Below, one piece after another: positions 36,451 to 47,510 of a stretch of DNA of 64,000 nt (position 1 is its first letter; every line of letters starts with the position of its first letter). The notes beneath the pieces were generated by a model that saw only the letters and a program-made list of their open reading frames with translations, was not told the origin of the DNA and did no database searches. The DNA is taken from assembly GCA_947454705.1 (NCBI GenBank), contig CANGKZ010000005.1, positions 62,001 through 126,000 of the forward strand, in the 5' to 3' direction. Position numbers and translations under genes: made by a program. Source of the DNA: Verrucomicrobiota bacterium. Lineage in GTDB: Bacteria > Verrucomicrobiota > Verrucomicrobiia > Limisphaerales > UBA9464.

Positions 36451-37974
36451 ATGTCCGCTGTTGAACGCATTTTGGTTTGGGGAATTGGTCTGACGCTCGT
36501 GGGGTTGATCGTGTGGCTGATCCGCACGCTTCGCCGCGCGCCGTCGGCGGATCCCGGCCTGGAGGCGGAACTGCGCACGCAACTCGCGGAACGGGAATCG
36601 GCGCTGGCTCAGGCGCGACAGGAAGCGTTGTCCACGGCCTCGCGCGTCGCGGGTGCCGAAGCTGCACGGGCCGCTTCTGAATCCCTGGCCAACACCCGCT
36701 CGGCCGAGGCTGCCGAAGCCCGACGCGAAGCCTCGGCCACTCGCGATCGTCTCGCCGCCGTCGAAGCCGCCCTCGCCGGGGCGCGACAGGAAGTGGAAAT
36801 GGGACGCGCCCTGCTGGAGGAGCAAAAGCGGTTTCATGCCGACAACGAACGTGAACTCCGCGAGAAGCACGATGCCGCCCTGGTGGAGTTGCGCGCGATG
36901 AACGATCGAACCCTCCTGTCCCTGCGCGACCAGTTCAAGGTGCTCGCCTCGGAAGCCCTGAGCGCCAACACGCCCGATTTCCTGCGTCTCGCCAATGAGA
37001 CGTTTTCCAAATTCCAGGCCGCTGCCTCCGGGGATCTGGCCAAGCGGCAGGAAAGCGTCGCCGCCCTCGTAAAACCGCTCGAGGAACAGCTCAAGGCCTA
37101 TCAGCAACGGCTTCAGCAATCCGAAGCCCAGCAGGGCGACACCCTCGGCAAGGTGAAGCAACAACTCCAGGAGCTCGCCACCCAGAGTCAGACCCTCTCC
37201 AGCGAGACCCAGCGTTTGCGCATGGTGCTGTCGAGCAACCAGGCCCGCGGCCGATGGGGGGAGGAAACACTGCGCCGCGTGGTGGAAGCCGCTGGGCTCA
37301 GCGCCCATTGCGATTTCATCGAGCAGCTGAAGGAAGGCGAGAGCAAGCCCGACATGATTGTGCGCCTCCCCGGCAACCGAATGATCCTGGTCGATTCCAA
37401 GGTGCCGGACCTCGATTTTCTCAGTGCGCTGGGTGAGGCCGATGCGGTGCGCCGATCCGAAGCCCTCGCGCTGCACGCGCGCAAGATGCGCGACACGGTC
37501 AAGGCTCTCGCCGATCGCGATTATCCGCGCCAGTTTCCCGATGCCTTGGACCATGTCGTTCTCTTCCTTCCCGCTGAATCGCTCTTCAGCGCGGCGCTGG
37601 AAGGCGATTCCGAACTACTGATGTGGGCCGCCGAGCGTCACATCCTGCTGTCCACTCCCGCCTCATTGATTGCCCTGTTGCGGAGCGTGGCCGTGAGTTG
37701 GCAGCAGCACGAACAATCCCAAAACGCCCGGGAAATCGCGGCCGCCGCGCGCGAACTCTACGAACGGGTCGTAACCTTCAGCGGACACTTCGTCCACATC
37801 CGGGGCGGGCTCGAGCGGGCCGTAAAGTCCTACAACGATGCCGTTGGAAGCTTCGAAAGCCGGGTGCGTCCGGGCGGTGAAAAACTGCTCAAACTGGGCG
37901 GCGGTACAGAGTCCAAGGAACTGGGCGAAGCCTCGCCCCTCGACCTCACCCTTCGGCTTCCCCCGGGATCCTGA
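36451..37974 (+). CDS. rmuC: DNA recombination protein RmuC homologue
   Basis: This 507-residue protein has the RmuC layout: an N-terminal membrane helix (about 6-24), a long Ala/Glu/Arg-rich coiled coil (about 30-215), then the nuclease-like RmuC domain. The conserved core RGRWGEETLRRVVEAAGL (about 267-284), PDMIVRLPGNR and VDSKVP is present. In E. coli RmuC limits rearrangements at inverted repeats; its biochemical activity is not settled. The gene stands alone and converges on the glycosyltransferase cluster, with a 10-bp gap between stops. Confidence 0.93.
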   Translation: MSAVERILVWGIGLTLVGLIVWLIRTLRRAPSADPGLEAELRTQLAERESALAQARQEALSTASRVAGAEAARAASESLANTRSAEAAEARREASATRDRLAAVEAALAGARQEVEMGRALLEEQKRFHADNERELREKHDAALVELRAMNDRTLLSLRDQFKVLASEALSANTPDFLRLANETFSKFQAAASGDLAKRQESVAALVKPLEEQLKAYQQRLQQSEAQQGDTLGKVKQQLQELATQSQTLSSETQRLRMVLSSNQARGRWGEETLRRVVEAAGLSAHCDFIEQLKEGESKPDMIVRLPGNRMILVDSKVPDLDFLSALGEADAVRRSEALALHARKMRDTVKALADRDYPRQFPDALDHVVLFLPAESLFSAALEGDSELLMWAAERHILLSTPASLIALLRSVAVSWQQHEQSQNAREIAAAARELYERVVTFSGHFVHIRGGLERAVKSYNDAVGSFESRVRPGGEKLLKLGGGTESKELGEASPLDLTLRLPPGS

Positions 37975-37984
37975 TCGGACCCAA

Positions 37985-39184
37985 TCATCCCGCCCACTGG
38001 TAGGAGACAAAACGCCAGGCCAGGACGGCGTGCAGTGCTCCCAGAAAAACCAGAATTGGAACAATCATCCGTCGACCTCGTCGCCCGGGGCCACGCAGCT
38101 CGCAAGCGGCTACGATGAACAGGGGGAAGACGATTCCCTCGAAGCGGATGAAGGAAACAAAGAGCCCACTGAGAGCGGGAACCAGTCCGAGGATCACTAC
38201 CCAGCAGAACAAATCCTTGCCCCGTCTCCAAACCGACGGAAGCAGCAGCAGGAATAGGGCAAATCCGACTCGATCCAGCAGGGAACCTCGAAAGGAATGC
38301 CACGATGTGGGATTGAAAAACGCGGAGACCGCCCGTTCCGGATGAAGAAGATTTTCGATCGAATGAGCCTTCCAATGAGCCTGTGCCGCGAATCCTGAGA
38401 ATGCGTCGCCGGTCCACTCCTTCATCAACAGAAGATAGGTTCCCCATCCGGTAAGAATCACTCCTCCGAGAACCATCGGCCCCATTGCGCTTCTAAGACG
38501 GTTCTCCGGGGCCGCACCGCGCCAACGACGGATTACGTCCCACGCTGCGGGCAACAACGCCAGCAGCCCGACTGCACGAGTCATCGGAAGAAAGAATCCT
38601 GCGAGAGAGGCGATTCCAAATCGACCCTGTCGAATTCCCCGCCACACCCACATCAGCAAAAAGAAGAAGACCGATTCGGAATAGTTGAACTGCTGAAAGA
38701 GCGTTCCGGGAAACAACACCAACAGCATCAGCGCAAGATGGGCTACCTCCGGTCCCCAGCCATCCCGGGTGGTGCGGTAGAAGAGAATCCACGCTGCGAG
38801 TGAGAAACCGTTCGCGAGCAACAACCCGACCCATACCGCGTCGATCCCGGTGACCCGCGCTGCCATCGACATCAGCGTTGGCCAGAGCGGATACATGGCC
38901 GCCGACTTCAGGTCCGGGGTGTACCCAAACTGGGACAGGTAGAGAAAATGGGTCGCATCCCAGGTGGTGAAGTGCCGACGAAACCCCGACTGCTGTCCTT
39001 CGAGCCAGATCGCCCCTTCTTTCGGAAACCAATACTCCCGGATGTACCCGGCGGTGGAATCCTCGAAGCCCGGGTAAATCTGCAGGGCGAGAAGAAGGAT
39101 TCCTGCGTAGATGCCCTTGAAAAGCAGCAAACCCTTTGCGACATCCAGCCAGGGACGATCTGGGTTTGGGGTCCCTGGCTTCAT
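37985..39184 (-). CDS. PIG-V-like integral membrane glycosyltransferase, copy 1
   Basis: The ATG at 39184 (MKPGTPNPDRPWL) gives 399 residues; the longer frame is read antisense through GtrA. About ten hydrophobic helices are present. The first periplasmic loop contains WDATHFLYLSQFGY and then YPLWP, resembling the D-x-x-x-Y...P pattern of the PIG-V/GT-C mannosyltransferases. These enzymes transfer sugar from a polyprenyl-phosphate donor on the outer face of the membrane. The second gene at 40744-41958 is a paralogue: both have FLPMTRAVG/LLPLTRAVG and a GSxLDR motif followed by a similar helix. It is the last gene of the minus-strand cluster, 20 bp after gtrA. Confidence 0.7.
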   Translation of the reverse strand: MKPGTPNPDRPWLDVAKGLLLFKGIYAGILLLALQIYPGFEDSTAGYIREYWFPKEGAIWLEGQQSGFRRHFTTWDATHFLYLSQFGYTPDLKSAAMYPLWPTLMSMAARVTGIDAVWVGLLLANGFSLAAWILFYRTTRDGWGPEVAHLALMLLVLFPGTLFQQFNYSESVFFFLLMWVWRGIRQGRFGIASLAGFFLPMTRAVGLLALLPAAWDVIRRWRGAAPENRLRSAMGPMVLGGVILTGWGTYLLLMKEWTGDAFSGFAAQAHWKAHSIENLLHPERAVSAFFNPTSWHSFRGSLLDRVGFALFLLLLPSVWRRGKDLFCWVVILGLVPALSGLFVSFIRFEGIVFPLFIVAACELRGPGRRGRRMIVPILVFLGALHAVLAWRFVSYQWAG

Positions 39185-39204
39185 CGGTCCGGATTCTGTG
39201 CGAG

Positions 39205-39726
39205 CTATTCCACCGGCAGCTGGAATACCGAGTTGCGCAAACCAGGCATGTAATTCGCTGGCGCAGGCAGCGATTGGAGAGGTTCTGTCTCTTCGTTGGT
39301 TTTCCAGTTCCAACGCTTGCAGGCGTGGAAATTCCAGACGCAGGCGATGACAATCGCGAACAGGTTCGAAGGAACCAAAGGCGCGTGTCCCACGTGGACC
39401 AGGCCGTGCAACAACAGCGTGGAGATCGCGATCCCTCCCAGGCAAATCAGGCTGAATCGGGCGAATCGCAGGGCGACAAGCGATTGGGTTCCAGCGCGCG
39501 GGCTTTGGGATCGAAAGGTCCAGCAATCGTTCCAGATGAAATTATTGATCACCGCGATGCCGGCGGCGGCCAGCTTTCCGGAAGCCAACGGCCAGCCGAA
39601 CCATTGCGTGAGCACCCAGAGTCCACCGGTATCCACCACCACTCCGCTGGCCCCCACGAGCGCGAACCGGATAAACCGGACCGCATCCCCCTTGCGAAGT
39701 TGCCTCATCGAATCATTCAGATTCAT
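39205..39726 (-). CDS. GtrA-family membrane protein
   Basis: The ATG at 39726 (MNLNDSMRQLRKG) has a GAAGAGG-type ribosome-binding site upstream and gives a 173-residue protein. The four helices and the motifs RFALVGASGVVVDTGGLWVL, INNFIWNDCWTF and WNFHACKRWNW are characteristic of GtrA. GtrA proteins are thought to flip or deliver undecaprenyl-phosphate-linked sugars across the membrane. Here it lies between a pseudopilin gene and a PIG-V-like transferase, so it may supply the lipid-linked donor to the two transferases of this cluster (inference). Confidence 0.88.
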   Translation of the reverse strand: MNLNDSMRQLRKGDAVRFIRFALVGASGVVVDTGGLWVLTQWFGWPLASGKLAAAGIAVINNFIWNDCWTFRSQSPRAGTQSLVALRFARFSLICLGGIAISTLLLHGLVHVGHAPLVPSNLFAIVIACVWNFHACKRWNWKTNEETEPLQSLPAPANYMPGLRNSVFQLPVE

Positions 39727-39775
39727 ATGTCTTAAAACCTCTTCTTTTCCTTTGGTGCCGACTTGGTGGAAAAAC

Positions 39776-40702
39776 CTAACGCCTGTGTGAGAGCGCAAAC
39801 GGACTGGAATCCGCTTGCGGTGCCGGATTTCCCGCCACCGCCGTGGGGGCAGTGGATGCCTCCCTCCAAGTCGCGTGCTCCTGCATCCATGCGATGTCCC
39901 GGTTTCCCGGACTCAGCATGTCGTTCCGTTCGCGGCTCAACGTTGCCGGATTCATCCAGCGCTTGGTTTCGATATGACCATCGCCGAACGAAAGATTTGC
40001 TCCCGAATTATGATGAAGAGCCGGCTTGTCCCGAAGCATCCAGTTGGCTGGACGCCGGGCGTCGAAGTCCCACTGCATGGCAAAGCTGCCATCATTGATG
40101 GTGTCCACACGCTCTTCCATCACCGTCAACAGATCGGAAGGACCGGGTCGCAGGAAGTCGCCGCGCTTCCGGTAGGTGGTTGCCGATGGGGAGGTCACCG
40201 GAGCTCCGACAAAGCCGTTGATGGAGACGGTCCGCACCCGGATTTGCGGAGTGGGTCCGAGTTTTACCGGCCCGGTGGAAGGACAGCGCCAGAGGGTGAC
40301 ATCCGTAAGATAACGGCCGAGCAGACTCTGCCTCAGAAATGAAACATTGGTGCAGTCGGGGCCGGGAAGCCCCAGCCAGCCCTGCACCCACGTCTCCCCC
40401 AGCGGAATATCCTCTCCGTCCCGGTTGGGAGGCACCGTGTCCAGATGGTCATCCGCATACAGATGAAAGGCGAGGGACACCTGTCGGAGATTGGAACCGC
40501 ATTGAATCTGTCGGGCCTTACTCCGCGCTCGCGCGATGGACGGAAGAAGCATTCCAGCCAGGATGGCGACTACGGCAATCACGGTCAGAAGCTCGATCAG
40601 GGTAAAAGCGCCTCTGCTCCGTCGTTGAATCTGGGGCGATACGTTCCCGGGTTTGAATGCCGCTCGGATTCCCATTTCCTGAGCGTCTAGATCAGTGTTC
40701 AT
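39776..40702 (-). CDS. Type II secretion/type IV pilus-like pseudopilin (H-X9-DG type)
   Basis: The ATG at 40702 follows an AAGGAG ribosome-binding site and gives 308 residues. The leader has basic residues, then GAFTLIELLTVIAVVAILAG at 31-50: the prepilin peptidase site is just before F33, with the required Glu at mature position +5 (E37). The C-terminal part has H-NSGANLSFG-DG, the H-X9-DG signature of the abundant Planctomycete/Verrucomicrobial pseudopilins. These are membrane-anchored filament or secretion subunits, and individual roles are mostly unknown. It lies inside the glycosyltransferase cluster, 41 bp after one transferase and 49 bp before gtrA. Confidence 0.9.
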   Translation of the reverse strand: MNTDLDAQEMGIRAAFKPGNVSPQIQRRSRGAFTLIELLTVIAVVAILAGMLLPSIARARSKARQIQCGSNLRQVSLAFHLYADDHLDTVPPNRDGEDIPLGETWVQGWLGLPGPDCTNVSFLRQSLLGRYLTDVTLWRCPSTGPVKLGPTPQIRVRTVSINGFVGAPVTSPSATTYRKRGDFLRPGPSDLLTVMEERVDTINDGSFAMQWDFDARRPANWMLRDKPALHHNSGANLSFGDGHIETKRWMNPATLSRERNDMLSPGNRDIAWMQEHATWREASTAPTAVAGNPAPQADSSPFALSHRR

Positions 40703-40743
40703 GGTGGAATTCTCTCCTTGGATGCGTGGCTCCTGGCAGTAGC

Positions 40744-41958
40744 TTAGCTGGCCCAGTCGAAGCTGAAATATCGGCTCCAGAGCCAGCCCTGAATCAATAG
40801 AGCATCGACCGTGACGACCCATAGCCATGGACGAGGGAGTCGCGGTGCGATTGCGGCCGCAGCGAGGAGGAGCGGCAGGTTGGTGCTCGTGAATCGGGAG
40901 GTGCTGAGAAACCAATTGGTGAATGCAGGAATGAGCAGCATTGCTGCGGCCCACGGAACCCAATCTAGTCGAACTCTTGCGAGCGGAACCAAAAGCCCAA
41001 GGCCGGTCAGAAACATAAAGCGATCCAGAAAGGAACCGGTTGGGCTGTGGAGGTCATCGATATGAAAGAGCCGATGAACGAAGGTCGCGGGATCTGCGAG
41101 GTGCAGCAGGCTCGGCTGATTCGCGAATTTCGACTGCGCCTCGATTCCCTCGAATGGGTTTCCAGCAACGCGTTGAAATAGCATCAGGTAGATCGCGCAT
41201 CCGGTCAGTACGGCCGCAATATAAGTCGCTGCTTGTATCCGCGTTCCGTGGCGACCTGTGAAAAGCCACATCAGCGGCACCAGAATCACAAAGGATCCCA
41301 CCGCCCGGGTCAGAGGGAGCAACAGGCAGGCGAGGGCTGCGAGAGCGACATGGAATCGGTTTTCGGACTCACACGTGGTGAGGAACAACACTACGAGAAA
41401 CAGGAACAGCGACTCGGAAAAGCCCAACCAGTAGAAAATTGAGCTGGGATGAAGACAGAGGACGAGCAGCACGGCATGGGCTTGGGATGTTCCCCATTTT
41501 TGAGCGACCCACGAGTGCAGTCGAACTCCGGCGAGGCCCGAAAGAATCGCCGCGATGGCAGCGGCAAGTACAGGACTTGCTGCGCTGTGTGGGATTCTCA
41601 AAACCCCGAGTAGAAATGGCCAGGCCGGGTAAAAAGCGCAGGCGGGGTCACCTGCGTGGTAGCCGCCGGATGCCAGGCCAAGATACTGGCTGACATCCAT
41701 GCAGCCAAAGCGGAGAAGAAACTCCGGGACCTGCTCCGTGTTCCATGCCGGCGCGTAGGTGGTGTAGAGGCCTCGCTCCGTGGTTGGCGCCCAGAGCATG
41801 GCAATGAGCAGCAGCGCGAGTTTGACCCCAAGCACCGCAAAAAGCATGCGTCCTCGAATCCGAATCCTCGACCCACGGCGCGAATCGGCCTGGCCCAGAT
41901 CTGAAATCGCCGGAATTGGTAGCACTCCGGGAATCATGGGAGACACACGTTGTTCCAT
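40744..41958 (-). CDS. PIG-V-like integral membrane glycosyltransferase, copy 2
   Basis: This 404-residue polytopic protein is a paralogue of the 37985-39184 product. After a basic N-terminus (RIRIRGRMLF) there are about ten helices. The first loop contains GCMDVSQYLGLASGGYH and FYPAWPFLLG, in the position of the D-x-x-x-Y...P motif of PIG-V enzymes. Shared stretches with copy 1 are LLPLTRAVG, SPTGSFLDRFMF and the FSESLFLFLVVL helix. The start at 41958 is the longest plausible one; an internal ATG lies 7 codons in. The small Cys-rich protein gene is 46 bp upstream. Confidence 0.68.
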   Translation of the reverse strand: MEQRVSPMIPGVLPIPAISDLGQADSRRGSRIRIRGRMLFAVLGVKLALLLIAMLWAPTTERGLYTTYAPAWNTEQVPEFLLRFGCMDVSQYLGLASGGYHAGDPACAFYPAWPFLLGVLRIPHSAASPVLAAAIAAILSGLAGVRLHSWVAQKWGTSQAHAVLLVLCLHPSSIFYWLGFSESLFLFLVVLFLTTCESENRFHVALAALACLLLPLTRAVGSFVILVPLMWLFTGRHGTRIQAATYIAAVLTGCAIYLMLFQRVAGNPFEGIEAQSKFANQPSLLHLADPATFVHRLFHIDDLHSPTGSFLDRFMFLTGLGLLVPLARVRLDWVPWAAAMLLIPAFTNWFLSTSRFTSTNLPLLLAAAAIAPRLPRPWLWVVTVDALLIQGWLWSRYFSFDWAS

Positions 41959-42004
41959 GAGCGTAGCCGTCCCGCGAAGGGATGGATCAGCAGGGCGAAG
42001 CGAA

Positions 42005-42328
42005 TCAGCAATTTGCGATGCCTGGAATTCTCACCCCGACGCCGATGCAGATCCACGCGCCTGTGCTGTTTTGAACCACGACGCCTGAGTAAACAAAATA
42101 CTGCACCACGGTTCCCCCCTGAGAGCAGCCCCAGAGCGGTCCGCCTCCGCAGCGGCCCCGCGGATTGGTGATGGAACCGCACGTGTTTCCGGCGGTGCCT
42201 GCGCCCGGCGTGCTTCCCGTAGGTGTCTGGGTTTCGTAGCACCATTCGAAAATCCCCGCGTGACTCGGGAGGATTCCGAGGATGACAGGCAGGGCGCAGA
42301 GCAGATTTTTGACCGAGCGTGGGTTCAT
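42005..42328 (-). CDS. Small exported six-cysteine protein of unknown function
   Basis: This 107-residue protein has a signal peptide (MNPRSVKNLLCALPVILGILPSHA). The mature part of about 83 residues has six cysteines (C30, C50, C60, C68, C94, C107), the last at the very C-terminus, enough for three disulfides. It is rich in Gly, Thr and Val (TPGAGTAG, GRCGGGPLWGC). I recognise no family. Its start overlaps the stop of the MauE-like gene by 4 bp (ATGA), so it is translationally coupled to a predicted redox-associated membrane protein, which makes disulfide-dependent folding plausible. Confidence 0.72.
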   Translation of the reverse strand: MNPRSVKNLLCALPVILGILPSHAGIFEWCYETQTPTGSTPGAGTAGNTCGSITNPRGRCGGGPLWGCSQGGTVVQYFVYSGVVVQNSTGAWICIGVGVRIPGIANC

Positions 42329-44073
42329 GGATTAGGTGTGGATCGTGGATTCCTGCAAAGTGCGAATGGGTTGATTCCTCTGAAGTCGTTGCCGCCTGGA
42401 TTGCTTGAGCGCATAGCGCGTCTCACGAAGGAGAGGCCGGGGATGCTCACGAGGGATGCCAGCCCGAGAGAGACCACGATGAACATAATCTCGCGGCTCC
42501 GGCTTGAGGCTCTCTGCAGCTCCGCGGCGCGGAGCGGACCTCGAAAACGAGCGTCGTGCTCGCTTCGGATCCAACCATCGGGACCCAAGGTATAAAACGT
42601 GGAGTTGAGGTAAGTAGTCTGCGTGCGATGGCGGAGGCGGCTGTCCTCCACGTGAATCTTCCCCAAGATTTGAGGGAGCAGCTCCCGCGCGGCGGGCGAC
42701 GCGTTTACCTGATGGACCTTTCCGACCCAACGAACCACCGCCACATCGCCAAACCCGGTTCCCAGAGGACCGAGCCTTCGAGCGGTGAACTCGCGGGGAA
42801 GACTGAATCTGGCTTGGGCTTGGAGTTCGGTAAGACTGAACTCGCTTCGCAAACGCTCGTTGGAAGGGGTGTTTCGAAATTGGTTCAGCGATTTCAACGC
42901 AGCGGCGACCTCCTCGGCCTCCGAGGGTTCGTTGAATTCAGGAAAGGAATCCAGGTTGGCCGGGATGTGTTCGGGCGCGTTGAGTTCGAAACTTGCAGTG
43001 CGCAGGAGTGTGGAGTCCCCATTGGTTTGAAAGGAGAGACTCGGGTGCACCACCCAAGCCGCAGGATCGCGTCGCGGATCGCCCGCAATCAGATCCGGAA
43101 CGACTCCAGCCTTTGAATTGATATTGAGAGTCCCACCAAGGAACGCGAGCCAGACGAGGCAAGCGGGAGTTCCATTCTCAATGGGATAAGGTCCGTGAAA
43201 TGTTCGACCGGGATGTTCGTTTTTCTCCAGCGGCAGGTTCGGCTCTGGTTGAAGCGTTCGGTTCAGTCGCTTGTCGCCATAGAGAACGCTGAAGAGGTTG
43301 GTTCCATCGTACGCGATTTCCTCGCGCATGTGGGCGTCCCATTTCGCGACCTCGCTCACGATTGACATGGACCATCGTCCTCCTGCATCCACGGCGATGG
43401 AGAACGGATATCGATTGGTTGCCTCGGCGTTGCCTGGTCCCCGATAGACCATCTCGGCAATCTCACCGGTCGCCTCATAGAGCGGTTGAAAGGCTTCTGC
43501 TTGAGCCCGCTGGGGAGCTCCCAAGAAGAACCCGAGCATCCCTCCCAGAAGGGCCATCGAGTGAACGCTTTTCTTTGCGATCCAACGCGGGAGCCCCAGA
43601 AGAATGCCCGAGCCCAGAGAAAGGAAGCTCAACAACACGACGCTCCACAAGTCGGCCCGCCCCTCCATGATCCCGAGGAAGGATCCGACGCCGAAGCACT
43701 TACAGAGGTGAGCGTGATCCGGTGCCAGCGAAAAACCGGCCCGATACAAAGCAAACACTCCACAGAGCCACGCCACCCCCTTAAGGCCTGCAATGCAGTT
43801 ACTAAGAAGGTTCTTAAGAATCAAAACAGCCACAAAAAATTCGAGGAATGAAGTGAGGATCAGAAGCGAGCGGCTGCTGACGAAAATCAGGAAGGGATCC
43901 GGCCCCTGGAGTCGGGGATCGGCGAAGTTCGAGAAGAGCTTCGCGGTTGCCGTGAGGGCGAAAAGTCCTGCGCATCCGAGGAGAAAGCACCGTGTCGTGA
44001 AAGCATACCAAGGGGGCAGTGTAGGCTTGATGGATGTGTGCGATGCCCGGGGGCGAGTGTTCCAGTCGGGCAT
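42325..44073 (-). CDS. MauE/DoxX-like membrane protein fused to a secreted domain
   Basis: The ATG at 44073 (MPDWNTRPRAS) gives 582 residues; a further in-frame ATG at 44133 is possible. Residues 24-162 contain four or five helices with HLCKCFG (C124, C126) before a helix, the CxCFG signature of MauE-type redox-associated membrane proteins. Residues about 170-192 (VHSMALLGGMLGFFLGAPQRAQA) look like an intact signal peptide with a cleavage site, after which a soluble domain of about 340 residues follows (EAFQPLYEATGEIAE...). A final helix lies near 530-552 (EIMFIVVSLGLASLV). The structure suggests two once-separate proteins joined together. It is the first gene of the cluster. Confidence 0.72.
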   Translation of the reverse strand: MPDWNTRPRASHTSIKPTLPPWYAFTTRCFLLGCAGLFALTATAKLFSNFADPRLQGPDPFLIFVSSRSLLILTSFLEFFVAVLILKNLLSNCIAGLKGVAWLCGVFALYRAGFSLAPDHAHLCKCFGVGSFLGIMEGRADLWSVVLLSFLSLGSGILLGLPRWIAKKSVHSMALLGGMLGFFLGAPQRAQAEAFQPLYEATGEIAEMVYRGPGNAEATNRYPFSIAVDAGGRWSMSIVSEVAKWDAHMREEIAYDGTNLFSVLYGDKRLNRTLQPEPNLPLEKNEHPGRTFHGPYPIENGTPACLVWLAFLGGTLNINSKAGVVPDLIAGDPRRDPAAWVVHPSLSFQTNGDSTLLRTASFELNAPEHIPANLDSFPEFNEPSEAEEVAAALKSLNQFRNTPSNERLRSEFSLTELQAQARFSLPREFTARRLGPLGTGFGDVAVVRWVGKVHQVNASPAARELLPQILGKIHVEDSRLRHRTQTTYLNSTFYTLGPDGWIRSEHDARFRGPLRAAELQRASSRSREIMFIVVSLGLASLVSIPGLSFVRRAMRSSNPGGNDFRGINPFALCRNPRSTPNP

Positions 44074-44192
44074 TTCACGAAAGACGTTACCTTCATGCGT
44101 GCAGGTTGAGAAGGCCCCAAGTTTGGTACGCATGGTGGGGATCGGGGAAAATCGAGTAGATGGCCCGAGTCGCGGCCAGTACGGTCGAAGGC

Positions 44193-47100
44193 ATGATGCG
44201 AAGGCTCATGCTTGCGGGTGTGTTCGCGGCCAACACGTTCTTGGCGTCGGCGCAGGGAGTGTCGGGGTATTATCGATTCCCCGCGATTCACGGCGACACC
44301 GTCGTGTTCACGGCGGAGGGTGATTTGTGGCGTGCCGGATTGAACGGAGGAGTGGCCCAGCGATTGACCACGCATCCCGGGCGGGAATCTCGCGCGGCGA
44401 TTTCTCCCGATGGACGCACCATCGCTTTTTCGGGCACTTACGAAGGACCGACGGAGGTGTACACGATGCCGATCTCTGGCGGGCTACCGGTGCGACAGAC
44501 CTTCGATGGCGCTGCGGCGTGGGTGGTGGGTTGGACTCCAGATGGACGCGTGTTGTTTCGCACGCTCACTCATTCGACGCTGCCGGAAGCGCAGTTGGTT
44601 AGCCTCGATCCGAAGACTGGAGACCGACGTCTCCTGCCGCTCGCGCAGGCGGCCGAGGGTGCGTATGAGCCTACCGGAAAAACATTGTTCTTCACGCGGC
44701 TTCCCCATCAGGGCAGCAGCACCAAGCGATATGAGGGAGGATCGGTTGAAAACCTTTGGCGGTTCGGTGCCGGCGATGCGGAGGCAGTCCCGCTTGCGTC
44801 GGAGTACAAGGGAACCAGCCGCAATCCAATGTGGTGGCAGGGACGGGTCTATTTCGTCAGCGACCGTGACGGCGTGATGAATCTGTGGTCGATGAAGCCC
44901 GACGGATCGGATCTCAAGCAGCTCACCCGTCATGCGGATTGGGATGTGAAGACGGCTTCGCTCGACCAGGGGCGCATTGTGTATTCGCGCGGGGCGGATC
45001 TTCGACTGTATGAGATTGCCTCCAACCGCGACCGCGCGCTTTCGATTTCACTCGCGTCGGACCAGGACCAGGAGCGCGAACACTGGATCAAGAAACCGTC
45101 CGAGTTTCTGACCGCGGCGCATCTTTCGCCGACCGGTGATCGATTGGTGCTGACGGCGCGGGGACAGGTGTTTGTGGCACCCCAGGGGCAGGGCCGGTTC
45201 GTGGAAGTTCCGCGCAAGCCCGGGGTGCGGTATCGCGATGCTCAGTTTCTCAACGGCGGAAAAACGCTCGTCGCTCAATCGGACGAATCGGGCGAGGTTG
45301 AATTCTGGACCCTGCCTGCCAGCGGCGTTGGAGGCGCATTACAACAGACCACCAACGCGACGGTGTTTCGTCATCCGGCGGTTGTTTCCCCGGACGGGAA
45401 GCGGCTCGCCTGGGGGGACAAGAATTCCAAGTTCTGGGTTCACGACCTCGACAAGAAGGCGACGACGCTGATCGGCGACACCAAGTCCTCCAGTGTCACC
45501 GACATCACGTGGTCGCCCGACAGCCAGTGGATCGCGTACGTGGATGAAGGGGAGAGTTCCTATCGTCAGATTTATCTCTACAACGTGGCCACGGGGTCGC
45601 GGACCAGTGTCACCAGCGAGCGCGTGGACAGCTTCAGCCCGGCGTGGTCGCCCGACGGAAAGTGGCTCTATTTCCTGAGCGACCGCGAGTTGCGATCACT
45701 GGTGGGCAGCCCCTGGGGACCGCGTCAGCCGGAGCCGTTTTTTACCGAGACGACGAAGATTTACGCTGTCGCGCTCAAGCCGGACCAGGCCTGGCCTTTC
45801 GCCCCCAAGACGGAGCTGTTGGAGGACGACGCGGAGAAAAAGGAGGCCAAGCCGGACGCGGATCTTGCGAAGGGCAAGGAATTGGCCAAAACGAATCCCT
45901 CGGACAAGGAAAGTTCCAAATCGGGCGCAACGAACAAACCGGTCGGGGTGACCGTGGAGATTGAGCTCGGCGGACTTTCGAAACGTCTGTTTGAAGTGCC
46001 GACGCCCGCAGGCAACTACGATGACCTCAAGGCGACCGCAAAGCACCTGCTCTGGACCTCGCGCGAGGTTGGCTTCGCCGCGAAGACTCAACTCAAGCAG
46101 CTCGAAATCACGCGGAAGGATCCCAAGCCGAAGGTTCTGGTCGAGGAACTCGCGAGCTATGAAGTGTCGGGCGATGGGAAGAAACTTCTGATTCGCAAGG
46201 GGGATGCGTTCTATGTCATCGCCGCCGATGCTTCGGCGCCGGCGAAGCTGGAGGATTCCTTCGATCTCTCCGCGTGGACCTTCTCGATTCAACCCCGCGA
46301 GGAATGGCGGCAGATTTATACCGAGTCCTGGAGAATGCTGCGCGACTACTTCTATGACCGCGATCTGCACGGCCTCGATTGGAGGAAGATCCACGACAAA
46401 TACCTTCCGCCCGTGGACCGGGTGAGCGACCGCGCGGAGTTGAACGACGTGATTGCCGACATGGCCGGTGAATTGTCGGCGCTGCACATCTTTGTCCGCT
46501 TTGGCGATGAGCGGGAGGGACCCGACGCCATCAAGGCTGCGTCCCTGGGCGCGCGACTCGAACGCGATGCCGCGGCCGGAGGCTGGCGCGTGGAGCATAT
46601 TTATCGGACCGATCCGGACTATCCCGCATCCGAATCACCCTTGATACGCCCCGGGGTTGAAGTGAAGGAGGGAGACACTATCACTTCGATCAATGGCCGA
46701 TCCACGCTGGAGGTTTCGCATCCGGAAATGCTCCTGCGAAACCAGGCGGGTCGGCAGGTGCGGCTTGAGGTGAAATCGTCCGGGGCCACCACCAACCATC
46801 CGGTAATTGTCCAGCCCGTGACGATCGAACAAGCCGCGCTGATGCGGTACAGCGAGTGGGAGTACACGCGTCGGCTGGCGGTGGACTCCATGAGTTCGAA
46901 CCAAATTGGATACGTGCACCTGCGGGCCATGGGAACTGACAACATCGCGGAATGGGCCCGCGATTATTATCCGGTCTTCAAGCGGCAGGGGCTGATTCTC
47001 GACGTGCGCCACAACCGCGGTGGCAACATTGATTCGTGGATTCTAAGCCGGCTGCTGCGGAAGGCGTGGTTCTATTGGCAGCCGCGTACTGGGGATCCGA

Positions 47101-47510
47101 CGTGGAATATGCAGTACGCGTTCCGGGGGCATCTGGTCGTGCTGTGTGACCATGCAACGGCGAGCGATGGCGAGGCCTTCTCGGAGGGCTTCAAGCGACT
47201 GGGGCTCGGCAAGGTGATTGGCACGCGCACCTGGGGAGGGGAGATTTGGTTGAGTGCGCGTCGATGGCTGGTGGACAACGGCATGGCCAGCGCGGCGGAG
47301 ATTGGTGTTTACGGACCCGAGGGGGCGTGGCTGATCGAGGGACATGGAGTGGATCCCGACATCGTGGTGGACAACCTCCCGCACGCCACCGCGGGCGGCC
47401 GCGACGCGCAATTGGAAGCCGCCGTGAAACACCTGCAGGAACTCATCGCCAAAGATCCCCGCCCGGTTCCTCCCGCCCCGAAGTACCCCAACAAGCGATT
47501 TCCCAAGTAA
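44193..47510 (+). CDS. Tricorn protease homologue (S41 family), exported
   Basis: The ATG at 44193 (MMRRLMLAGVFAANTFLASAQ) has a GAAGG just upstream and gives a signal peptide; the product is 1105 residues, close to archaeal tricorn (about 1070). The N-terminal half is a TolB-like propeller (ISPDGRTIAFSGTYEGPTE, WSPDSQWIAYVDEG). A Lys/Glu/Ser-rich insert lies at about 543-588. A PDZ domain (PGVEVKEGDTITSINGRS) and the C-terminal S41 core follow. HNRGGNIDSWILSRL and ATASDGEAF give nucleophile S991 and D992, matching the tricorn Ser-Asp pair. It should degrade peptides in the periplasm. It diverges from the MauE-like gene. Confidence 0.92.
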   Translation: MMRRLMLAGVFAANTFLASAQGVSGYYRFPAIHGDTVVFTAEGDLWRAGLNGGVAQRLTTHPGRESRAAISPDGRTIAFSGTYEGPTEVYTMPISGGLPVRQTFDGAAAWVVGWTPDGRVLFRTLTHSTLPEAQLVSLDPKTGDRRLLPLAQAAEGAYEPTGKTLFFTRLPHQGSSTKRYEGGSVENLWRFGAGDAEAVPLASEYKGTSRNPMWWQGRVYFVSDRDGVMNLWSMKPDGSDLKQLTRHADWDVKTASLDQGRIVYSRGADLRLYEIASNRDRALSISLASDQDQEREHWIKKPSEFLTAAHLSPTGDRLVLTARGQVFVAPQGQGRFVEVPRKPGVRYRDAQFLNGGKTLVAQSDESGEVEFWTLPASGVGGALQQTTNATVFRHPAVVSPDGKRLAWGDKNSKFWVHDLDKKATTLIGDTKSSSVTDITWSPDSQWIAYVDEGESSYRQIYLYNVATGSRTSVTSERVDSFSPAWSPDGKWLYFLSDRELRSLVGSPWGPRQPEPFFTETTKIYAVALKPDQAWPFAPKTELLEDDAEKKEAKPDADLAKGKELAKTNPSDKESSKSGATNKPVGVTVEIELGGLSKRLFEVPTPAGNYDDLKATAKHLLWTSREVGFAAKTQLKQLEITRKDPKPKVLVEELASYEVSGDGKKLLIRKGDAFYVIAADASAPAKLEDSFDLSAWTFSIQPREEWRQIYTESWRMLRDYFYDRDLHGLDWRKIHDKYLPPVDRVSDRAELNDVIADMAGELSALHIFVRFGDEREGPDAIKAASLGARLERDAAAGGWRVEHIYRTDPDYPASESPLIRPGVEVKEGDTITSINGRSTLEVSHPEMLLRNQAGRQVRLEVKSSGATTNHPVIVQPVTIEQAALMRYSEWEYTRRLAVDSMSSNQIGYVHLRAMGTDNIAEWARDYYPVFKRQGLILDVRHNRGGNIDSWILSRLLRKAWFYWQPRTGDPTWNMQYAFRGHLVVLCDHATASDGEAFSEGFKRLGLGKVIGTRTWGGEIWLSARRWLVDNGMASAAEIGVYGPEGAWLIEGHGVDPDIVVDNLPHATAGGRDAQLEAAVKHLQELIAKDPRPVPPAPKYPNKRFPK

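What the first reader, a model, noticed from the sequence alone, without database searches (positions are those of the whole stretch)
37985..44073. Six-gene minus-strand cluster combining redox membrane fusion, Cys-rich exported protein, pseudopilin, GtrA and two PIG-V-like transferases
Seen: six consecutive minus-strand genes with gaps of 20-49 bp and one ATGA overlap, in the order MauE-like fusion, six-Cys exported protein, PIG-V-like transferase, pseudopilin, GtrA, second PIG-V-like transferase. Established: MauE-type proteins are redox-associated, GtrA handles lipid-linked sugars, and PIG-V/GT-C enzymes glycosylate substrates outside the membrane. Inference: this could be a dedicated pathway that oxidatively folds and glycosylates a small exported protein or a pseudopilin. 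I know of no described system with this gene set.
Basis: partly seen in the sequence, partly recalled or inferred. Interest (0 to 1): 0.75.

Follow-up and report, generated by a model that had tools for sequence, protein, structure and literature searches.

The report
Export cassette with hypervariable cysteine-rich protein

Summary
The six genes are real and lie as described, in one tight minus-strand run between a divergent and a convergent gene. In the same bacterial order, MauE-like proteins, an exported domain, small Cys-rich exported proteins, PIG-V-like transferases, GtrA and one pseudopilin subfamily recur together; L105, from another family, has the window's order minus the second transferase. 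The unknown half of the 'MauE fusion' is predicted to have a LolA-type fold plus a C-terminal membrane helix. Directly downstream of such domains there is often a small secreted protein with at least six cysteines (24 of 74 anchors; 0 of 98 control genes). In a four-module tandem array the three cargos found are 22-44% identical, the transferases 77-97%. The window looks composite: a MauE-LolA-cargo-transferase cassette beside a pseudopilin-GtrA-transferase unit that also occurs without it. Best reading: MauE promotes disulfides in the cargo, the LolA-fold anchor holds it, GT-C enzymes plus GtrA glycosylate it outside the membrane, and the pseudopilin is a partner or second substrate. Linkage is shown; chemistry and purpose are inferred. 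Against: 35 of 74 anchors have neither MauE nor cargo nearby. Ten open-access searches gave no paper describing the set.

The parts
42325..44073 (-). P0001: MauE-like domain (about aa 24-165, CxC at 124-126) fused to a LolA-fold exported domain (about aa 193-510) with a C-terminal membrane helix (about 526-544)
   Evidence: PF07291 E 7e-4 for the domain, below cut-off; 40 of 44 aligned domains match; LolA, Z 11.1; hydrophobic stretches, CxC
42005..42328 (-). P0002: small exported Cys-rich cargo, signal-like start then six Cys
   Evidence: aligned with 24 other cargos picked by eye; test set
40744..41958 (-). P0003: first PIG-V-like GT-C transferase (start may be 41847)
   Evidence: (closest relative 43% identical)
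39776..40702 (-). P0004: pseudopilin of a dedicated DUF1559/H-X9-DG subfamily
   Evidence: 26 of 28 subfamily hits, the window's own included, lie within 10 kb of a PIG-V-like or MauE gene; 0 of the next 60
39205..39726 (-). P0005: GtrA-family membrane protein (predicted lipid-linked sugar translocator)
   Evidence: (PF04138 E 1e-25)
37985..39184 (-). P0006: second PIG-V-like GT-C transferase
   Evidence: (PF04188 E 7e-4, below cut-off)

Best explanation
The locus is one copy of a multi-copy export-maturation system of this bacterial order. A small protein with a signal peptide and many cysteines (P0002) is the cargo. The MauE domain of P0001 is a membrane redox protein that helps form the cargo's disulfides at the outer face of the inner membrane. 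The LolA-fold domain of P0001, anchored by a C-terminal helix, holds the cargo or its lipid or glycan partner. GtrA moves a lipid-linked sugar across the membrane and the PIG-V-like GT-C enzymes transfer it, most likely onto the cargo and perhaps onto the pseudopilin, which helps display or release the product or is itself a substrate. Shown: gene linkage, predicted fold, cargo family and its variability. Inferred: disulfide chemistry, sugar acceptor, role of the pseudopilin, order of steps. What the finished cargo does is not known.
For: Regions picked by the LolA-fold profile (60 fetched): 24 of 74 anchors have a >=6-Cys exported protein starting within 500 nt downstream, against 0 of 98 control genes; MauE within 3 kb on the same strand in 35 of 74, against 6 of 98. 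Loci picked by the transferase (48, at least 12 of them contigs already used): MauE within 5 kb in 26, LolA-fold 16, pseudopilin 34, GtrA 28. 35 of 67 transferase places in 145 genomes have MauE within 5 kb; crude chance about 0.004 per hit. L105 has fusion, cargo, transferase, pseudopilin, GtrA in the window's order. LolA fold. A GT2 sugar synthase is fused to a PIG-V-like enzyme in L142. Protein-mannosyltransferase-type (PMT_2) enzymes follow the cargo in another module of the window's genome (L116) and stand in L128. 26 of 39 anchors with MauE or cargo have a gene of the transferase clusters within 5 kb, against 7 of 35 without. Cargos diverge far more than transferases in a tandem array.
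Against: 35 of 74 LolA-fold anchors in the test set have neither MauE nor cargo nearby, and 22 of the 50 with enough flank. PIG-V-like genes lie within 5 kb of only 9 of 74, pseudopilin 15, GtrA 5. One genus (g3) has MauE-pseudopilin-GtrA-transferase loci with no LolA-fold gene or cargo called. The cargo does not match the methylamine dehydrogenase light chain; MauD was not searched for. The cargo structure prediction is poor (pLDDT 61). P0002 finds no convincing relative by sequence (best E 0.0017 in another genome), and a cargo profile detects only 5 of 24 test cargos. Foldseek TM-scores to LolA are low (0.2-0.3 by the query, about 0.4-0.5 by the target). The transferase clusters were defined on the same loci; two have no Pfam match and the largest mixes GT2, PIG-V-like and unnamed membrane proteins. 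A weak terminator-like site ends the pseudopilin gene. No assay exists.
Confidence: 0.5

Rival explanations
1. Two separate units that only happen to abut: a MauE-LolA-cargo-transferase cassette, and an independent pseudopilin-GtrA-transferase unit that modifies the pseudopilin or another envelope component.
For: Each half occurs without the other: MauE-pseudopilin-GtrA-PIG-V with no cargo called in genus g3; pseudopilin near only 15 of 74 and GtrA near 5 of 74 LolA-fold anchors. Across loci, cargo, LolA-fold and MauE genes have lower third-position GC than their loci (medians -0.28, -0.18, -0.15), while transferase, GtrA and pseudopilin genes do not. A weak terminator-like site lies at the end of the window's pseudopilin gene.
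Against: Loci with all part types together recur: L105 (window order), L127, L145, L103. MauE occurs in both halves. In the window itself all six genes have similar third-position GC (0.64-0.72), below the three neighbours measured (0.74-0.82), so no split shows there. Gaps in the window are short throughout.
Confidence: 0.3
2. GtrA and the GT-C enzymes decorate a lipid or polysaccharide, as in O-antigen glucosylation; the cargo and MauE are a separate redox pair next door.
For: GtrA, a lipid-sugar synthase (GtrB) and a GT-C enzyme modify O-antigen in the known three-component systems (PMC11127046, passages read). An O-antigen-ligase-like (Wzy_C) protein stands in some modules.
Against: None of the six window genes matches an O-antigen or capsule family in Pfam (genes beyond the two immediate neighbours were not classified). 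PMT-type protein transferases stand in two other modules. The linked exported products are cargo and pseudopilin.
Confidence: 0.2
3. The cargo is a modified peptide of the bacteriocin or RiPP kind; the cassette is a biosynthetic gene cluster.
For: decRiPPter reported three Streptomyces candidate families with MauE homologues, each with a predicted precursor of at least 8 Cys (PMC7794033, passages read). The cargos are small, variable and multi-copy. In genus g3 an ABC exporter, HlyD-type and outer-membrane efflux trio follows the unit (L118), and ABC-type genes of this cluster lie in 10 of the loci.
Against: Cargos begin with an ordinary-looking signal peptide. The g3 loci with the exporter trio have no cargo called. 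No known RiPP enzyme was noticed among neighbour clusters, but only ten neighbour representatives and a few further genes were given to Pfam.
Confidence: 0.15

Closest known systems
mau cluster (MauE and MauD maturing the methylamine dehydrogenase light chain)
   Same: MauE-type membrane protein next to a small exported Cys-rich protein; MauE has been speculated to act in disulfide formation (PMC7794033, passages)
   Different: None of the six window genes matches a dehydrogenase subunit or MauD in Pfam (the genome was not searched for MauD); the cargos do not match the light chain; LolA-fold and GT-C partners instead
MauE-containing candidate RiPP families in Streptomyces (decRiPPter, PMC7794033)
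   Same: MauE gene beside a short gene rich in Cys
   Different: Actinobacteria; the passages read name no LolA-fold, GT-C, GtrA or pseudopilin partner
Three-component extracytoplasmic glycosylation (GtrA, GtrB, Gtr; PMC11127046)
   Same: GtrA plus GT-C enzyme; GT2 enzymes near some related loci and one GT2-PIG-V fusion
   Different: No GT2 gene in the window run; linked to an exported Cys-rich protein rather than O-antigen
LolA/LolB/RseB-type periplasmic proteins
   Same: Predicted fold (Z 11.1 to LolA)
   Different: About 8% identity, C-terminal membrane helix, fused to MauE in the window
DUF1559/H-X9-DG pseudopilins
   Same: N-methylation motif and DUF1559 region
   Different: A separate subfamily, 49-58% identical to P0004, 26 of 28 hits near a PIG-V-like or MauE gene

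Membership tests
MauE (PF07291) | Pfam match above gathering score | tested here: not met
   Window domain 20.3 bits against cut-off 27
MauE (PF07291) | Family-level similarity and conserved Cys pair | tested here: met
   40 of 44 aligned domains match PF07291 at E<=0.1, best 1.7e-8; CxC invariant in the alignment of 44
Methylamine dehydrogenase maturation (mau) | Cargo is the dehydrogenase light chain | tested here: not met
   No light-chain match among 25 cargos in Pfam at E<=1; no PDB match by profile at E<=5
Methylamine dehydrogenase maturation (mau) | MauD partner | not tested
   None of the six window genes is one by Pfam; genome and relatives not searched
LolA/LolB superfamily | LolA-type fold | tested here: met
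   AlphaFold pLDDT 82, pTM 0.78; Foldseek E 6.6e-5 but TM-score 0.27/0.40; Z 11.1, 160-164 residues, rmsd 3.8-4.2
LolA lipoprotein carrier proper | Soluble periplasmic carrier with recognisable sequence | tested here: not met
   Predicted C-terminal membrane helix; no Pfam or PDB sequence match
PIG-V mannosyltransferase (PF04188) | Pfam match above gathering score | tested here: not met
   P0006 19.6 bits against 22.4; P0003 none; 13 of 38 aligned relatives match at E<=0.1
Three-component glycosylation | Lipid-sugar synthase, flippase and GT-C enzyme together | tested here: inconclusive
   GtrA and GT-C present; no GT2 in the window run; GT2 genes near several related loci and one GT2-PIG-V fusion
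H-X9-DG / DUF1559 pseudopilin | N-methylation motif and DUF1559 region | tested here: met
   PF07963 and PF07596 above cut-off; H-X9-DG 16.8 against 19, below cut-off
RiPP/bacteriocin cluster | Post-translationally modified bioactive peptide | not testable with these tools
   No product data

The most novel reading that the evidence does not exclude
A polymorphic export system: a low-GC3 cassette of MauE, LolA-fold anchor and hypervariable disulfide-rich cargo shuffles between loci and plugs into resident GT-C glycosylation machinery (PIG-V, PMT-like or O-antigen-ligase-like), giving each strain several different disulfide-bonded glycoproteins, perhaps for antagonism or for surface variation.
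Probability: 0.3. Interest if true: 0.87.

Novelty: new variant of a known kind. Interest (0 to 1): 0.7.

Why it matters
If true, this is a dedicated bacterial route that couples oxidative folding with extracytoplasmic glycosylation for a family of hypervariable exported proteins, in bacteria that most records here know only from metagenomes. It gives MauE, a domain of uncertain function, a testable client; adds a membrane-anchored LolA-fold protein with a new partner; and makes 'what acceptor do bacterial PIG-V-like enzymes use' a direct experiment.

Tried and rejected
Methylamine dehydrogenase light chain as the cargo's relative: no Pfam or PDB support. Anti-phage defence: no PADLOC match for the six proteins. 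Direct sequence search with P0002: weak matches in five other genomes (best E 0.0017), so the family was found by position. A cargo profile finds 5 of 24 test cargos (E 4e-5 or better in a set of 24), 19 not at all, and 0 shuffled copies: distant homology is supported for some cargos only. The four invariant Cys columns come from an alignment that such Cys-rich proteins tend to force. Cargo structure prediction: poor, not searched. The LolA-fold profile found only the window's own genome among 387 of the phylum, against 86 of 320 in the order; both score only a few candidates per genome, so counts are lower bounds. Promoter scan: no sigma-70-like site; 14 terminator-like sites against 7.3 in shuffles (sd 2.9), most inside genes, one weak one at the end of the pseudopilin gene: co-transcription is undecided.

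Limits: the 25 cargos were picked by eye, where I count a cargo of six or more Cys behind 23 of 39 LolA-fold frames. The test set holds 60 regions chosen from listed hits at about E<=4e-21 and not fetched before; weaker hits were left out, and a few anchors are two pieces of one frame. The 67 transferase places were merged by me. Related genomes are not independent, so the Fisher value overstates. The control pseudopilins are the next 60 rows, not all rows.
Full report
OBSERVATION. The six minus-strand genes lie as described: P0001 42325-44073, P0002 42005-42328 (ATGA overlap), P0003 40744-41958, P0004 39776-40702, P0005 39205-39726, P0006 37985-39184, with gaps of 46, 41, 49 and 20 nt, between a divergent tricorn-type protease gene at 44160 and a convergent RmuC gene ending at 37974. 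Pfam names only the pseudopilin, GtrA and, weakly, PIG-V for P0006; NCBIfam adds only pilin-type matches to the pseudopilin.

WHAT P0001 IS. Its first part aligns with 43 related domains; three columns are invariant, a glutamate and a CxC pair. 40 of the 44 match Pfam MauE at E<=0.1, the window copy below cut-off. The second part is a separate family with no Pfam or PDB sequence match. In other genomes it is often a separate gene next to MauE. The AlphaFold model of the window domain (pLDDT 82, pTM 0.78) resembles LolA: Foldseek E 6.6e-5 to a P. gingivalis LolA-type protein, though with low TM-scores (0.27 by query, 0.40 by target), and Z 11.1 over 160-164 residues to P. aeruginosa and E. coli LolA. 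By the tool's own note best Z values of 7-8 are common for models without a clear match, so 11 is a fair but not overwhelming fold match. A membrane helix follows the domain.

THE CARGO FAMILY. Downstream of the LolA-fold frames in the first loci, 23 of 39 are followed by a small exported protein with six or more Cys, by my eye. The 25 proteins aligned share four Cys columns and little else. I then tested this on other regions picked by the LolA-fold profile. Of 74 anchors, 24 have a 60-170 aa protein with a signal-like start and at least six Cys starting within 500 nt downstream; 0 of 98 control genes in the same loci do. MauE lies within 3 kb on the same strand in 35 of 74 (control 6 of 98). 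Of the 50 anchors with enough flank, 26 have MauE, 18 the cargo, 16 both and 22 neither. In the transferase-anchored set 11 of 20 LolA-fold frames have a cargo. The 49 cargos are about twice as rich in Thr and 2.4 times in Tyr as 173 other exported proteins, and poor in Leu; Cys was part of the selection.

LINKAGE OF THE OTHER GENES. Of 48 loci found in named records by the transferase (34 titled Verrucomicrobia or a member, 13 only 'bacterium', 1 'Proteobacteria'), MauE lies within 5 kb in 26, the LolA-fold in 16, a pseudopilin in 34 and GtrA in 28. In 145 relatives, 35 of 67 transferase places have MauE within 5 kb. P0004 defines a pseudopilin subfamily: 28 hits at 4e-70 or better including its own, of which 26 have a transferase or MauE gene within 10 kb; of the next 60 pseudopilins in the list, 0 do. 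L105, from another family of the order, carries MauE-LolA fusion, cargo, transferase, pseudopilin and GtrA in the window's order, with no second transferase and with a small frame and an extra GtrA-like frame before the last gene. L145, L127 and L103 hold all part types in other orders. The window's genome holds further copies: C11 has cargo, MauE and transferase; C49 has MauE, LolA-fold and cargo, followed by a PMT_2-type transferase above Pfam's cut-off; C23 has MauE and transferase. A third LolA-fold gene (C5, about 75 kb away) has none of the others called near it.

TWO UNITS. Loci of one genus (g3) have MauE-pseudopilin-GtrA-transferase with no LolA-fold gene or cargo called; in L118 an ABC exporter, HlyD-type and outer-membrane efflux trio follows. 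Most LolA-fold anchors have no pseudopilin (15 of 74 do) or GtrA (5 of 74 do) within 5 kb. Across loci, cargo, MauE-LolA, LolA-fold and MauE genes have lower third-position GC than their loci (median -0.28, -0.26, -0.18, -0.15), while transferase, GtrA and pseudopilin genes do not (-0.03, -0.02, +0.01). In the window this split does not show: all six genes lie at 0.64-0.72, the three neighbours measured at 0.74-0.82. In genome G144 four modules stand in tandem: transferases 77-97% identical, GtrA 69-76%, the one MauE-LolA pair compared 51%, and the three cargos found 22-44%. That is what shuffled or fast-evolving cargo beside a duplicated transferase would leave.

SUGAR CHEMISTRY. Where PIG-V-like genes are absent, other membrane proteins stand in modules: a cluster whose representative matches O-antigen ligase (Wzy_C), one matching PMT_2 weakly, and two whose representatives have no Pfam match at E<=0.01; PMT_2 matches above cut-off occur in L116 and L128. 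GT2 synthases occur nearby, and in L142 one is fused to a PIG-V-like enzyme, pointing to a lipid-linked sugar donor. 26 of 39 LolA-fold anchors with MauE or cargo have a gene of these clusters within 5 kb, against 7 of 35 without; the clusters were defined on the same loci, so this is descriptive. Known three-component systems use GtrA, a lipid-sugar synthase and a GT-C enzyme (PMC11127046, passages read).

DISTRIBUTION AND LITERATURE. The LolA-fold profile matches 86 of 320 genomes of the window's order at E<=1e-5 and, of 387 drawn across the phylum, only the window's own. Ten open-access full-text searches (listings read) gave no description of this gene set; subscription journals and preprints are not covered. 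The nearest is decRiPPter, which reports three Streptomyces candidate families with MauE homologues, each with a predicted precursor of at least 8 Cys, and says that MauE has been speculated to form disulfides in the methylamine dehydrogenase beta-subunit (PMC7794033, passages read).

VERDICT. The linkage is strong for parts, though not for all six genes as one block; the mechanism is inference. I file it as a new variant of a known kind (MauE-linked maturation of a small Cys-rich exported product), with two families, LolA-fold anchor and cargo, that Pfam does not name.

Noticed in passing
L106 and L107 (G144:C1, about 2276-2294 kb): Four module copies in tandem with similar transferases (77-97%) and very different cargos (three found): a natural experiment on cargo diversification.
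   Followed up: partly
L288:2006-5068(-), cluster of 14 genes in 12 loci: A 1021-aa protein with O-antigen ligase, dienelactone-hydrolase and transglutaminase-like matches stands in modules that lack PIG-V-like genes.
   Followed up: partly
L142:7062-8921(-): GT2 sugar synthase fused to a PIG-V-like transferase.
   Followed up: partly
L118:8096-12671(+): ABC exporter, HlyD-type protein and outer-membrane efflux protein directly follow the MauE-pseudopilin-GtrA-transferase unit in genus g3; similar-looking genes follow it in L121.
   Followed up: partly
L211:5920-7074(-) (window genome C5, about 75 kb from the window run): A stand-alone LolA-fold gene without MauE, cargo or transferase called nearby.
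   Followed up: no
window 44160-47510(+): Large divergent gene next to the run: tricorn-type protease by Pfam.
   Followed up: partly
L128 (G061:C10): Three MauE-pseudopilin repeats within about 12 kb, two cargos called between them, plus a PMT_2-type transferase gene.
   Followed up: partly
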